Assembly: GCA_030272155.1 (NCBI GenBank)
Contig: CP126204.1
Location: 4,393,501-4,457,500 of the forward strand
Length of the DNA stretch: 64,000 nt
Source of the DNA: Tetradesmus obliquus
Lineage: Eukaryota > Chlorophyta > Chlorophyceae > Sphaeropleales > Scenedesmaceae
Reading direction: 5' to 3'
How positions within the stretch are numbered: position 1 is the first letter of the stretch; each line of letters opens with the position of its first letter. Position numbers and translations under genes: made by a program. The notes below the pieces were generated by a model, which had not been told where the DNA came from, searched no databases, and worked only from the letters and a program-made list of their open reading frames with translations. Positions 1 to 64,000 of the stretch are shown in pieces.

Positions 1-3000
1 GCTTCCTGGTGGCTGCATGCCGCCTTGCTGCTGCTGCAGCGCAGCTACTGACTGGCATGCTTGAGGCAGGCAGTAGCAGCGGCAATGCTTCCGGCAGTCA
101 AGAGCAGCAGCAGCAGCAGCAGTGGGCTGGTGGAAAGACTGGAGGCGGCTCACATGGAAAGGGAGGGAAGAAGAAGCAAGCCGCGCAGGCAAAAGCAGCA
201 GCAGCAGCTGTAGAAGACAAGCCATTTGCAAAGCGTCGGCAGCAGCAGCAGCAGCGGGCGCAGGGCAGTGCTGCAAGCCAAGGCACTGCCGGCGCTACTG
301 GTGCTGCAACAGTAGCTGCAGTGGATGACATGCTGACTGTGATGGAGGCTTTTTTGCAGCATGTGCTGCCAGCAGCCCAGAGGGTGCTGCCAGCAGCAGC
401 AGAGGAGGCAGCAGCAGCGCAGCAGGGCCTGCCTGCAGGGCAGCAGCAGCAGCAGCAGCAGCAGCTTGGGGTGTTTTGTGGCCTGCTGCATTCGGTGCAG
501 CAGCTGCTGCTGGCGCTGCTGATGAGTGGTGAGCAGACTTCGCCAGCAGGGGTAGCACTGCACAGCTTGATGTATTTCAGTGCTGGCTGTGCATCTCCGC
601 GGGCTACCATGCGTCCTTGGGTGCATGTGTGAGAGCAGCTTGGATGCGAATCCGCTGCTGCGTGTGCCATGCTAACTCCACATGCATTATACTGCCTCTG
701 CCACTGCAGGCAGCAGCAGCGCCGAGCTGTCTTCTTTTCTGGCCCCCTTTGCACGGCAGCTGCTCGGCCCCGGCTGCAGATGGGCCAGCAGCACTTGGGG
801 CATCCTGGAAACGGTGCCCCTGCCGCCTGCTGCTGTTGGGGAGGCGTGGCAGCTGCTGCTGGCTGCTGCTCTGGCGCTGGAAGGTCAGGCATTCATGCCA
901 GGTAGGTGCGGGTGTTTTGTAGCGTGCTGAGGTTACCTGTGTTGGCTGTGCTGCATGCGTGTTGCCGACTGCACTGACGTTCGGCGGAAATAAGCCGTAT
1001 CCATCAAACAGATCGGTGAGTGTGTGTTCAGAGGGGGCCGGCGACCAGCAGCACCTGGGGCATCCTGGAGGGGGTGGCGCTGCCTGCTGCTGCTGTTGGG
1101 GAGGCGTGGCAGCTGCTGCTGGCTGCTGCACTGGCACTGGAAGGGCAGGCCTTCATGTCAGGTAGGTTGTTACGCTGTGAGTTGCCTGCCTTGGCTGTGC
1201 TGCATGCGCGTTACGGACTGCACTGGCATTCGGCGGATGTAAGCAGTATCCATCAAACAGATCGGTGAGTGCGGGTTCAGAGGGGCTGGCATGTGGCAGT
1301 GACATATAAGCATTATGTGTGGATGCTAGAGGCTAGAGGTGGAATGTACCTCACATACTGTTATGTGCTGGTGCTGGGGGGTTTGAACTTAGAGTCAGGT
1401 GGGGGTATGCCTGTGATCTGGCTACATGCTGTGCTGCTGTGTGCAAGTGAAGGCTGTGTTGAATGCATGTTGCAACTTCACTAGCATTCCGTGCCAGGTT
1501 TCATGACAGTGCACCCGATAGTCGCATGGCGGGTACCTGGACATCTCATGGACTGTCAACTCAGACATTCCTGCTGTGTTTGCAGGCAGCGCCCCACCAA
1601 ACATCCCTGCCCTTGCTGCCGCACTGAGCAGCAAAGCCAGCAGCAGAATCGCCCTGCTTGAGCTGCTGTGCTCAGCAGCAGCACACCCACCCAGCGCTAC
1701 CCATGCTGCTGCACCCCAGCAGCACCAACGCGGCTCAGCAGCAGCAGCAGCAGCAGCAACAGCAGACATCCGGCGCTTCGGTGGTGTTTCCGAGCTGCAC
1801 AAAGCAGCGCTATGCATTGTAGCGGCTGTGCTGCGCTGCGGTGATGCATGTTGGGTGTGGCAGGATGTGCTGACTGCGCTGGATGCAGCAGTAAGAACTG
1901 CAGGGCCTGGCATCTTGTCACAGCCAGATCTGCTGCTGCAAATTGTACTGCTGTACTGCCAGACTGAACAGCAGCTAGCAGCTGACCTGTACCAGCAGGC
2001 AGTTCAACTTGATACCATACTGCTGGTGGATGTACCGCAGCAGCAGCAGCAGCAGCAGGTGAGTGCAGCAAGCGGCAGCAGTCATGGCCGGGCTGTAGCA
2101 CTAGCTGCTGCTGCAGCGCAACTGCCGCTGCCTAGTTGCATCTTGCATGCATTAGAGAAGTGTGGCAGAAGCATGCCAGCTGGCGTGCAGCCGGATCACA
2201 CAACAGCACAGTGGGTGGTGGCACATGCAGCACAGCTGCCGGGCACTGCACGGCTGCTGCTGCAGCGCTGGCTAGCTGAGCTGCTGCCAGCAAGCAGCAG
2301 CAACTCTGAAGCAGCCGGCAGCGGCGGCGCTGCTGCTGGCGGCCCACAGTTGCAGCAGGGGGCTTCAGCAGCTGCAGCAGCAGATGCAGAGCAGCAGCGA
2401 GAGGAGGGGTGTGCAGCACTGGTGGGACTGCTGCTGAAGTTCCCGGGTGCATTGCAGCTGGCAGTGCAGTTAGCTCGGGGCTGTATTGAAGCCAAGCAGC
2501 AGCAGCAGCAGCAGCAGCAGCAGCTGGCGGGCTGGCTATGCATACTGACAGCAGCTGTGCGCAGCTTGGGCACAGGCAGCAGCACTGGCAGCAGCACTGG
2601 CAGCAGCACTGGCAGCAGCAGCAGCAGCAATGGTAGCTGTGCTGATTGGGATTATTTGAGCTACCTCAGTATGCAAGGCACAGGCTGTGAGGCTCTGATG
2701 GCTAGCAGCAGCAGTGTGAGGCTGCAGCAGCTACTGCTGGGGCCTGCTGGCTTGCTTGATCTCTGCAAGCGCTCGCTGCTGGCTGCTGCTGCCTCCGCTG
2801 GCAGTAGCTGGGGCAGCAGCATGGTGGTGTGGGCTTGCAGCAGCTGCCTGGTGGCTGCTGTTGATGCAGTGACAGCAGCAGCAGCAGCAGCAGAGGATGG
2901 GGCTGGTGAGGCTGTTGGGGTGGGGCTGCAGCTGGAGCAGCAGCTGCTGCAGTACGGCATCCAGCAGGTGAGCTGCTGTGGTGAGAGAGGTTGGTTAAAG

Positions 3001-62300: not shown

Positions 62301-64000
62301 GCAATCAGAAGCAAGCCAGAGCCATGTGCTGCCCACACACGCATCTACACAGCGCCACATGATGTCAACCAGTTAATGCTGATGTTGCTCAACACCGCAC
62401 CTTGAGCGGCATGTCGTTGGCCGCGCCCTCCACCGCCAGCCAGGGGTGCTCCAGCGCCTCAGCAGCGCTGGGCCGCAGCACGGGGTTGCGCTGCAGCAGC
62501 CGCTCCAGGAAGTCGCGCGCGGCGGCGCTCAGCGGCTGCAGCTCCGGCGCGTCCCAGTCGATCTCGTTGGACAGGATGGCCTGCAAGTGGTGAGAAATGT
62601 GACGAGATGTCATGTTACATGACAGATAGCGTAGGCCCGCGGAAGGGCTCAGCCAGCCAGGGGGAGCAGGGGAGTGAGTTGGGTGGCACCCAAGTGGAAA
62701 CAGATAGCACAAGACAGTAAGCAGTGGTTGAGGCATGACAATGGAATGGGCCTAGGGCAGCACACCAGCCGTTCTTGCAGCAGAGAGCCTCTGTGTTGCA
62801 AGCAGTGCACTGCAGGGAGTGCTGAAGCCCATCAAGCCACTAGCCCTCCCCGTCCCTTGCTAATCCCTCCTCTCAGTCTCTCTCCGTCACACTCCCTCTC
62901 CCTCTCTCTCTCACTCTCTCGCTCTCACTCTCTCGCGCTCTCTCCAGCCGTCACCAACCCCACCTGCGTGCGTAGCACCAAGCTTGGAGTGTGCACCAGC
63001 TTTACCATCCGCGGGCCATGCTGACGAGGCCCCCTGCGCGAAAACCAGCGGTCAACCCGCAGCGCCACCCGCACCACACCCAGCACCAGCCAGCGCAGCG
63101 CATTCTGCAGCGCCACGCTGGCAGCACACCGCAGCAGCCAGCGCGCAGCACGCAGCGCGTGCGCTGACAGGCTGAGCCGCGGCGGCGGCGGCAGCTGCAC
63201 CGCAATCACCACGGCCGGCAGCGAGGTGCTGCCTGAGCCCTGCTGCTGCTTGACCACACTCTCCCCTCCTGCTCCTCTTACACTCCCGCCACTCTTGTCA
63301 CCCTCGTCACTCTTGTCATAGCTGCACACCTTCCACACGTCGCTCAGCGTCTCGTTGCGCACGTCCTCCCAGAAGGGGAAGCGCCCCGTCAGCAACTGGT
63401 AGCCCAGCATGCCCACGCTCCACAGGTCGGCCTTCTCGTCGTAGCACTGCATCACCAGCTCGGGCGCCATGTACGCCGGCGTGCCTACACATGCACGGCG
63501 TACAGCAGCAGCAGCAGTTACAGAGGCAGCAGGTGCAACCATACACAACCACACCGGCCAGTTTTTTTGTCGCAGCACTGCATCACCAGCTCGGGCGCCA
63601 TGTACGCCGGCGCGCCTGCACATGCACAGCGTACAGCAGGAGCAGTCACAGCAGCAGTAGCAGTCATACACAACCACACAGGCACGCTTTCTCATCGTAG
63701 CACTGCATCACCAGCTCGGGCGCCAAGTACGCCGGCGTGCCTGCGGCAGCACAGCATACAGCAGCAGCAGCAGCAGTCACAGCAGCAGCGATCAGATACA
63801 GTCACAGGCAGCCTTGCGTTGTAGCACTGCATCACCAGCTTGGGCGCCAAGTATGCCGGCGTGCCTGCGGCAGCACAGCATACAGCAGCAGCAGCAGCAG
63901 CAGTCACAGCAGCAGCAATCAGATACAGTCACAGGCAGCCTTGCGTTGTAGCACTGCATCACCAGCTCGGGCGCCATGTATGCCGGCGTGCCTACAGCAG
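59301..64000 (-). CDS. Calcium-dependent protein kinase (CDPK), N-terminal part off window
   Basis: Exons: 63484-63330, 62580-62401, 62140-62015, 61574-61473, 61111-61022, 60076-59864, 59396-59301. Phases agree and code for about 320 C-terminal residues; the N-lobe and catalytic loop lie beyond the right edge. The first exon holds the activation segment and helix F ([39 protein letters not shown]). The second ends the kinase ([18 protein letters not shown]). The third is the autoinhibitory junction and start of the calmodulin-like domain. Four canonical EF-hand loops follow: [36 protein letters not shown], and [12 protein letters not shown], the last split between the final two exons. Calcium binding to the EF-hands relieves autoinhibition in this family, which phosphorylates Ser/Thr. 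The C-terminus is short ([16 protein letters not shown]). Open sequence after 63330 is intron. Confidence 0.93.
59735..59900 (-). repeat. Two-copy CDPK exon 3' edge carrying EF4
   Basis: The end of the EF3/EF4 exon ([17 protein letters not shown] plus GTGGGT, 59864-59910) recurs diverged at about 59742-59795 in the next intron. The copy has lost acidic residues (Arg-Arg-Pro in place of Gly-Asp-Gly). Confidence 0.85.
60010..60612 (-). repeat. Five-copy ~120-base array of CDPK exon carrying EF3, 5' edge
   Basis: The acceptor and start [19 protein letters not shown] occur at about 60076 (used), 60212, 60332, 60475 and 60608. Intron sequence between copies (caattggcaaaggtgaggggt) is also repeated. 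The outermost copies are more diverged (e.g. NYLDQ in place of SYVDQ). Confidence 0.93.
61340..61500 (-). repeat. Two-copy EF1 exon 3' edge
   Basis: The exon end VVNESE and donor at 61471-61490 recurs at about 61350-61372. Confidence 0.8.
63445..64000 (-). repeat. Five-copy ~126-base array of CDPK activation-segment exon 5' edge
   Basis: The acceptor plus [15 protein letters not shown] occurs at about 63484 (used), 63617, 63743, 63866 and 63993. The outer copies change M to L and one lacks the Asp-Glu that follows. Intervening AGC tracts are part of the unit. The array runs off the window. Confidence 0.92.

What the first reader, a model, noticed from the sequence alone, without database searches (positions are those of the whole stretch)
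1..64000. Exon edges of every multi-exon gene sit inside tandem arrays that include the splice site
In the Q-rich gene, sulfite oxidase, the receptor-like kinase, the coiled-coil gene, the COG0354 gene and the CDPK I count about 20 separate arrays in which a piece of exon, its acceptor or donor and adjacent intron are repeated 2-12 times (units about 60-260 bases). One copy is continuous with the exon; the rest are diverged. The arrays are independent (different sequences and periods) yet share this architecture, so a recurrent process seems to duplicate DNA across exon-intron borders. Because a duplicated splice site keeps splicing possible, such duplications can lengthen introns almost neutrally and create decoy or alternative exon edges. 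I do not know of a described system of this generality; that novelty claim is my inference.
Basis: partly seen in the sequence, partly recalled or inferred. Interest (0 to 1): 0.88.

Follow-up and report, generated by a model that had tools for sequence, protein, structure and literature searches.

The report
Exon-edge copies crowd algal introns
In the green alga Tetradesmus obliquus, short pieces of gene sequence that include a splice site are repeatedly copied into the neighbouring intron, which lengthens introns and leaves spare decoy splice sites, some of which appear in annotated alternative proteins.

Summary
The window lies in Tetradesmus obliquus (OEZ86). In the three genes modelled exactly (sulfite oxidase, COG0354/YgfZ, CDPK), 17 of 46 internal splice edges, not all, carry decoy copies in the adjacent intron. 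The pattern recurs elsewhere: local repeats are direct (185 direct, 1 inverted, 0 in shuffles); 6 of 66 kinase exon edges have an intronic copy against 0 of 60 interior windows. In two duplication-rich random loci, 11 of 12 duplications lie on splice edges and one on a stop codon. In four profile searches 18 of 18 upstream copies share the exon's start and 13 of 18 downstream copies its end; one shares only the wrong edge. Many are spaced direct repeats (76 of 108 loci), not strict tandem arrays. Collapsing copies cuts mean intron length in the three genes from 605 to 291 bp. Annotated isoforms contain decoy-derived sequence. Best explanation: local duplication plus unequal exchange, tolerated because the original splice site still works. 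Single cases are published; this pervasiveness was not found in my searches. The origin of the youngest, codon-phased copies is open.

The parts
34144..34614 (+). COG0354 gene: donor of exon ending 34211 (CDT|GTGTGT) with three downstream decoy copies
34670..35045 (+). COG0354 gene: acceptor of exon 34957-35184 with two upstream decoy copies (93% over 124 bp)
35546..37208 (+). COG0354 gene: 12 acceptor copies (period about 140), the last continuous with exon 37137-37304
37206..37538 (+). COG0354 gene: donor copy pair, 104 bp at 88%, spacer 125 bp; differences 2/0/10 by codon position
37770..38086 (+). COG0354 gene: acceptor of exon 38021-38188 with two upstream decoys; in strain OEZ85 an annotated isoform (P0242) holds an extra exon like such a decoy
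38108..38448 (+). COG0354 gene: donor of the same exon with two downstream decoys
39147..39542 (+). COG0354 gene: acceptor of exon 39416-39576 with upstream decoys
33731..34006 (+). COG0354 gene: 59-bp array that starts in the last about 12 bp of the exon ending 33742 (GACAG|GTAACAG)
10744..10963 (-). SOX exon 2 donor (exon 11347-10876) with one downstream decoy
10201..10639 (-). SOX exon 3 acceptor (exon 10243-10089) with two upstream decoys
8922..9166 (-). SOX 3' end: 57-bp copy whose homology stops at the stop codon
63421..64000 (-). CDPK exon 63484-63330 (GTPAYMAPE) acceptor array, 10 copies in all, continuing beyond the window
61553..61739 (-). CDPK EF-hand exon 61574-61473 acceptor with an upstream decoy; its donor has a short decoy 120 bp downstream (about 61352)
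60873..61044 (-). CDPK exon 61111-61022 donor with a decoy (CTCATTGACTGGGGGCAG|GTGAGC)
60017..60611 (-). CDPK exon 60076-59864 acceptor with four upstream decoys (period about 131)
59681..59913 (-). CDPK exon 60076-59864 donor with two downstream decoys

Best explanation
The Tetradesmus obliquus nuclear genome undergoes frequent short local direct duplications (units roughly 60-290 bp). When a duplicated piece spans one splice site, the transcript can still be spliced at the copy joined to the exon, so the extra copy is nearly neutral; it stays in the intron as a decoy, decays, and can be amplified into arrays by unequal exchange. Duplications inside exons damage the protein and are lost. Intron-only duplications fade quickly because neither copy is constrained. 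The visible result is exon-edge copies beside introns, longer introns and occasional alternative exons. SHOWN here: the copies, their direct orientation, edge sharing, spread over the sampled genome, array structure, intron length with and without copies, and annotated isoforms that contain decoy-like sequence. INFERRED: near-neutrality, unequal exchange as the amplifier, and the mutational origin of the first copy.
For: Direct 185, inverted 1, shuffled 0 HSPs over 331 kb. Inside arrays the intron-derived parts between copies are themselves alike, as whole-unit amplification predicts: over 10 arrays the mean identity between decoys is 0.85 (exon part) and 0.80 (intron part), for example 0.92/0.94 and 0.86/0.86. 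16 of 16 array loci in exact models span one edge, against 61% expected. Kinases: 6 of 66 edges, 0 of 60 interior windows. Profile tables: 18 of 18 upstream copies share the exon start, 13 of 18 downstream copies share the exon end. Codon phase of pairs under 90% identity fits one constrained plus one neutral copy. 52% of intron DNA in 20 introns is extra copies; mean intron 605 falls to 291 bp when collapsed (collapsed lengths worked out by me from array spans). Published mean intron length is 462 bp for T. obliquus and 230-302 bp in four other green algae (PMC5966456 Table 1, passage).
Against: The exon part is the more alike in 7 of 10 arrays, and in two (38108 donor, 59681 donor) the intron-part value is close to the shuffled baseline. 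28 of the 31 loci at 90% identity or more are spaced, not tandem (three of the 28 are an LTR-like pair and two other wide or odd repeats). In 9 of 9 pairs examined (88-98% identity) the flank next to the splice site or stop codon shows no homology (z -1.0 to 2.4), although a recent simple tandem duplication should leave alignable flanks; in one of them (L031 4145) the spacer as a whole does match the outer flank (z 10). In pairs at 90% or more, 65 of 93 substitutions fall in one codon phase, too many for a neutral decoy (strata set after seeing the data). One downstream copy shares only the exon's start (PF00133, C15) and three others share neither edge. So simple duplication and decay does not fully explain the youngest class.
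Confidence: 0.62

Rival explanations
1. Exchange between diverged haplotypes or lineages: unequal recombination joins one copy from lineage A to one from lineage B. Exons still align, introns and UTRs do not. So the repeat appears to stop at splice sites and stop codons, intron-only events are invisible, and even young copies already differ by synonymous changes.
For: Spaced structure in 76 of 108 loci; adjacent flanks unrelated in 9 of 9 pairs examined; one codon phase holds 65 of 93 substitutions at 90% identity or more, for example hydA 1/0/8 by codon position; two duplications end at stop codons (SOX, hydA). Of the three decoy-covered COG0354 sites where strains OEZ85 and OEZ86 differ, two OEZ86 decoys carry the OEZ85 residue (SPA, GLAI). 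No third copy of the hydA segment and no second copy of one spacer in the assembly.
Against: The third of those sites (YTF/YTL) carries the OEZ86 residue in the decoy, and the OEZ85 residues may be ancestral. In L031 4145 the spacer matches the outer flank. Over all spaced pairs outside the window the codon phase fits a neutral decoy (p 0.34). At the synonymous divergence seen, introns might be expected to align partly. No second haplotype was available.
Confidence: 0.18
2. Both copies are functional: decoy exon pieces are used in alternative transcripts and kept by selection while their introns drift.
For: Annotated isoforms with decoy-like sequence: CHAK repeat in P0123; 26-residue insert in P0242. 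Codon-phased differences in the 90%-plus class. The downstream hydA copy has AG at its start, so it could be an exon (reading).
Against: CDPK and SOX decoys accumulate nonsynonymous changes, gaps and stops at near-neutral proportions. In the four donor-type copies of L031 I saw no acceptor right at the copy's exon-side end (reading), so they could not simply be exons.
Confidence: 0.08
3. Assembly artefact: haplotype switching or collapse errors create false local duplications.
For: Spaced copies with diverged flanks resemble what mixing two haplotypes would give. No raw reads were seen.
Against: Arrays of up to 12 copies with 70-90% identity and decay are hard to make by assembly error. Strain OEZ85, a different contig set, has its own annotated decoy-like insert. 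Duplicated places occur about once per 3 kb of the sampled sequence.
Confidence: 0.05
4. Intron gain by tandem duplication of an AGGT-bearing exon segment (Rogers model).
For: Duplications across boundaries can make new introns (PMC4974935).
Against: In the three modelled genes each copy matches its own exon edge and no donor-side copy matched an acceptor-side copy of the same intron in the self-alignments. The introns are lengthened, not created.
Confidence: 0.03

Closest known systems
[quoted passage not shown] potato RdRp case (PMC4974935, abstract and results section read)
   Same: A tandem duplication crosses an intron-exon boundary and carries the splice signals with it
   Different: One gene and one event that makes a new intron; here existing introns are lengthened at many edges, with up to 12 copies
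Internal tandem repeats at exon-intron boundaries of human segmental duplicates (PMC2812944, outline and passages read)
   Same: Repeats at exon-intron boundaries alter splicing
   Different: 27 intron modifications in recent human paralogues, attributed to minisatellite expansion; here conserved genes sampled across one genome
Introners (PMC9860276, search listing only)
   Same: A recurrent process that reshapes introns genome-wide
   Different: Introners insert copies of themselves in many genes; here each array has its own local sequence, and the one spacer searched genome-wide is single-copy
Internal exon duplication (recalled, no call)
   Same: Exon sequence repeated inside a gene
   Different: Here usually only the edge of the exon is repeated, on the intron side of that edge; in L041 nearly a whole exon is

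Membership tests
[quoted passage not shown]
[quoted passage not shown]
   In the three modelled genes each copy matches its own exon edge; ancestral intron absence could not be tested
Introners / mobile introns | Same sequence dispersed at many genomic sites | tested here: not met
   One spacer and one decoy searched: no site outside their own loci; only these two were searched
Minisatellite tandem arrays | Contiguous head-to-tail units | tested here: inconclusive
   32 of 108 loci full tandem, 76 spaced
Tandem repeats at exon-intron boundaries that alter splicing | Transcripts that use the repeat copies | tested here: inconclusive
   Annotated protein isoforms only (P0123, P0242); no reads seen

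The most novel reading that the evidence does not exclude
The young copies are limited to coding sequence: they end at splice sites and at stop codons, their adjacent flanks are unrelated, and they already differ mainly at one codon position. This would mean that exon-edge duplications are the scars of repeated exchange between diverged lineages whose exons, but not introns, can still pair. The arrays would then be a readable record of hybridisation and a main source of intron growth.
Probability: 0.18. Interest if true: 0.85.

Novelty: new variant of a known kind. Interest (0 to 1): 0.62.

Why it matters
How introns lengthen and how spare splice sites arise are long-standing questions usually studied through rare single events. 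Here one genome shows the process at several per cent of exon edges or more (6 of 66 in the kinase sample), at stages from near-identical copies to decayed 12-copy arrays, with annotated isoforms that seem to have picked up decoys. If confirmed with reads and a second strain, it would let rate, decay and exonisation of splice-site duplicates be measured directly, and could explain why T. obliquus introns average 462 bp against 230-302 bp in four other green algae (PMC5966456).

Tried and rejected
1. Strong conservation of decoy exon parts: one search suggested that exon parts of decoys are far more conserved than intron parts (7 of 7 arrays). Comparing only sequence between copies removed most of it (0.85 against 0.80 on average, exon part higher in 7 of 10); the rest came from flanks outside the repeat unit.

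2. A sharp claim that the outermost copy always ends at the splice site: one search supported it for most donor arrays, but a lenient extension puts only 7 of 18 outermost copies within 12 bp (5 of 18 against any copy). For the single pairs the adjacent flanks are unrelated in 9 of 9, so I keep it only for that class.

3. Paralogue source of a decoy, and mobile-element origin of a spacer: no second locus (one of each tested).

4. rRNA identification (RF01960) did not complete; the organism was identified from protein names and contig length.

5. Pfam was run on 4 of 10 random loci, chosen for many duplications: L031 and L033 gave usable genes; L037 gave nothing and L029 one weak match.

6. Papers seen in passages that gave nothing on this: PMC12899622, PMC8226300, PMC7955037.

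Full report
WHERE IT IS. The window is C14:4393501-4457500 of a 104.7-Mb genome in 17 contigs. C14 is 4,804,715 bases long. The window's CDPK gives NCBI proteins OEZ86_008805 of Tetradesmus obliquus on a contig of that length (P0122: 100% over 94% of my model, another N-terminus), and COG0354 gives OEZ86_008804 at 100% over 99% of my model. 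A second assembly of the species, OEZ85, appears in the same database.

GENE MODELS. SOX was placed with homologues: 4 exons. CDPK: 11 exons. COG0354: 8 exons in the exact analysis plus three upstream exons found from OEZ86_008804. All 20 introns have GT donors and AG acceptors.

THE COPIES. In these genes 17 of 46 internal splice edges have decoy copies of their own exon edge in the adjacent intron: CDPK 7 of 20, COG0354 8 of 20, SOX 2 of 6. One of the 17 rests on an 18-bp exon match and in another (33731) the exon part is only about 12 bp. SOX has a further copy that stops at its stop codon. Copy numbers run from 2 to 12 and spacings from 101 to 229 bp, with one 59-bp array. Many copies carry nonsynonymous changes, some gaps or stops, while two decoys of CDPK exon 10 match the exon exactly over 60 bp. 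Of 7 outermost donor copies, 6 keep a GT.

GENOME SAMPLE. Local direct repeats cover 17.9% of the window, 13.1% of ten random 5-kb loci and 6.0% of 25 kinase loci; 185 direct against 1 inverted HSP, none after triplet shuffling. Clustered, these are 108 loci. In 20 loci chosen for having two or more kinase-profile matches, 6 of 66 exon edges (placed by profile ends, not exact splice sites) have a copy in the next intron, and 0 of 60 interior windows do; L016 contributes two of the six and may be one event seen from both sides. Of the ten random loci I ran Pfam on four with many duplications. L031 is a P-type ATPase gene: 8 of 8 duplicated places lie on exon edges (edges read by me from frame, AG/GT and recalled ATPase motifs). 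L033 is an Fe-hydrogenase gene: of 4 places, 3 lie on splice edges and 1 ends at a stop codon (same kind of reading; the array at 754-1484 is outside the Pfam matches). The other two gave no usable gene. In protein-profile tables, decoys appear as repeated profile ranges: HSP70 in 2 of 9 clusters, tRNA-synt_1 in 3 of 7 (one uncertain), kinesin in 1 of 35, chaperonin in 4 of 11 at 10 distinct edges (tolerance 5 positions). Upstream copies share the exon's start in 18 of 18 cases. Downstream copies share its end in 13 of 18; of the other five, one shares only the start (C15, PF00133) and some are probably ordinary neighbouring exons. These are lower bounds, because weak copies are missed.

IS IT MORE THAN GEOMETRY? 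With units near 130 bp and collapsed introns near 290 bp, uniform placement gives 61% edge-spanning among edge-or-intronic events; 16 of 16 gives P = 2.9e-4. A visibility bias remains: an edge copy keeps one constrained partner, an intron-only copy has none.

WHAT IT DOES TO INTRONS. In 20 introns of the three genes, removing extra copies lowers the mean from 605 to 291 bp; 52% of intron DNA is extra copies (collapsed lengths worked out by hand from array spans). PMC5966456 (Table 1, seen as a passage) gives mean intron lengths of 462 bp for T. obliquus and 230, 302, 284 and 270 bp for R. subcapitata, M. neglectum, C. zofingiensis and C. reinhardtii. That the arrays explain the difference is my inference from three genes.

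DECOYS IN PROTEINS. P0123, an annotated isoform of the window's CDPK, repeats CHAK; all three decoys of that donor hold AG|TGCCACGCCAAG|GT. P0242, an OEZ85 isoform of the COG0354 gene, inserts GSVPMGEADWERARITQGRPSAAEAT, which resembles the following exon's start; the OEZ85 DNA was not seen. These are annotations; no reads were seen.

HOW THE COPIES ARISE. Inside arrays the intron-derived parts between copies are alike as well as the exon-derived parts (mean 0.80 and 0.85 over 10 arrays; exon part higher in 7, equal in 1, lower in 2; in two arrays the intron value is near the shuffled baseline). So whole units are amplified in most arrays, as by unequal exchange. The first copy is less clear. 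76 of 108 loci are spaced; at 90% identity or more it is 28 spaced against 3 full. In 9 of 9 examined pairs the flank next to the splice site or stop codon is unrelated, though in one (L031 4145) the whole spacer matches the outer flank (z 10). In pairs at 90% or more, 65 of 93 substitutions share one codon phase, above a neutral-decoy expectation with assumed proportions; older pairs fit it (the strata were set after seeing the data). Over all 51 spaced pairs the neutral-decoy expectation is not clearly exceeded (p 0.06; 39 pairs outside the window p 0.34), while uniform phase is rejected. Thus the youngest copies look as if founded from a coding sequence that already differed by synonymous changes, or as if both copies were constrained at first. 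Exchange between diverged lineages would explain both the unrelated flanks and the codon phase. Of three decoy-covered COG0354 sites where the strains differ, two OEZ86 decoys carry the OEZ85 residue (SPA, GLAI) and one the OEZ86 residue (YTF), so this is only suggestive. A lenient extension found only 7 of 18 outermost array copies ending within 12 bp of the edge, so the sharp boundary holds for single young pairs, not for all arrays.

KNOWN WORK. A potato duplication crossing an intron-exon boundary (PMC4974935, abstract and results section) and human internal tandem repeats at exon-intron boundaries (PMC2812944, outline and passages) show that the event type is known. Nine searches of the open PMC library, judged from their listings, several of them cut short, showed no description of this pattern in T. 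obliquus or of a genome-wide case; subscription papers are not in that library.

Noticed in passing
40719-41184 and 42826-43291: A 466-bp direct repeat with 100% identity, 2.1 kb apart, like the two long terminal repeats of a small young element.
   Followed up: no
44581-47221: A 2.6-kb (CA)n microsatellite, 99% matches.
   Followed up: no
48258-48873: 28-bp minisatellite of about 19 copies.
   Followed up: no
49463-49745 and 50895-51184: A direct repeat of about 290 bp at 88%, 1.4 kb apart.
   Followed up: no
16430-16748, 21136-21526, 25349-26285: Duplications in the region of the receptor-like kinase gene; the first two have codon-phased differences (3/0/0 and 7/2/1), so they may be exon edges too, but the gene model was not fixed.
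   Followed up: partly
L033 2086-2502: Fe-hydrogenase gene: 152 bp of exon with its donor copied 265 bp downstream at 94%; 8 of 9 differences fall in one codon phase (one search gives 1/0/8 by codon position).
   Followed up: yes
63329-62964 (after the donor of CDPK exon 63484-63330): Two database proteins (P0121, P0123) read through this donor for about 122 extra residues, an alternative exon end.
   Followed up: no
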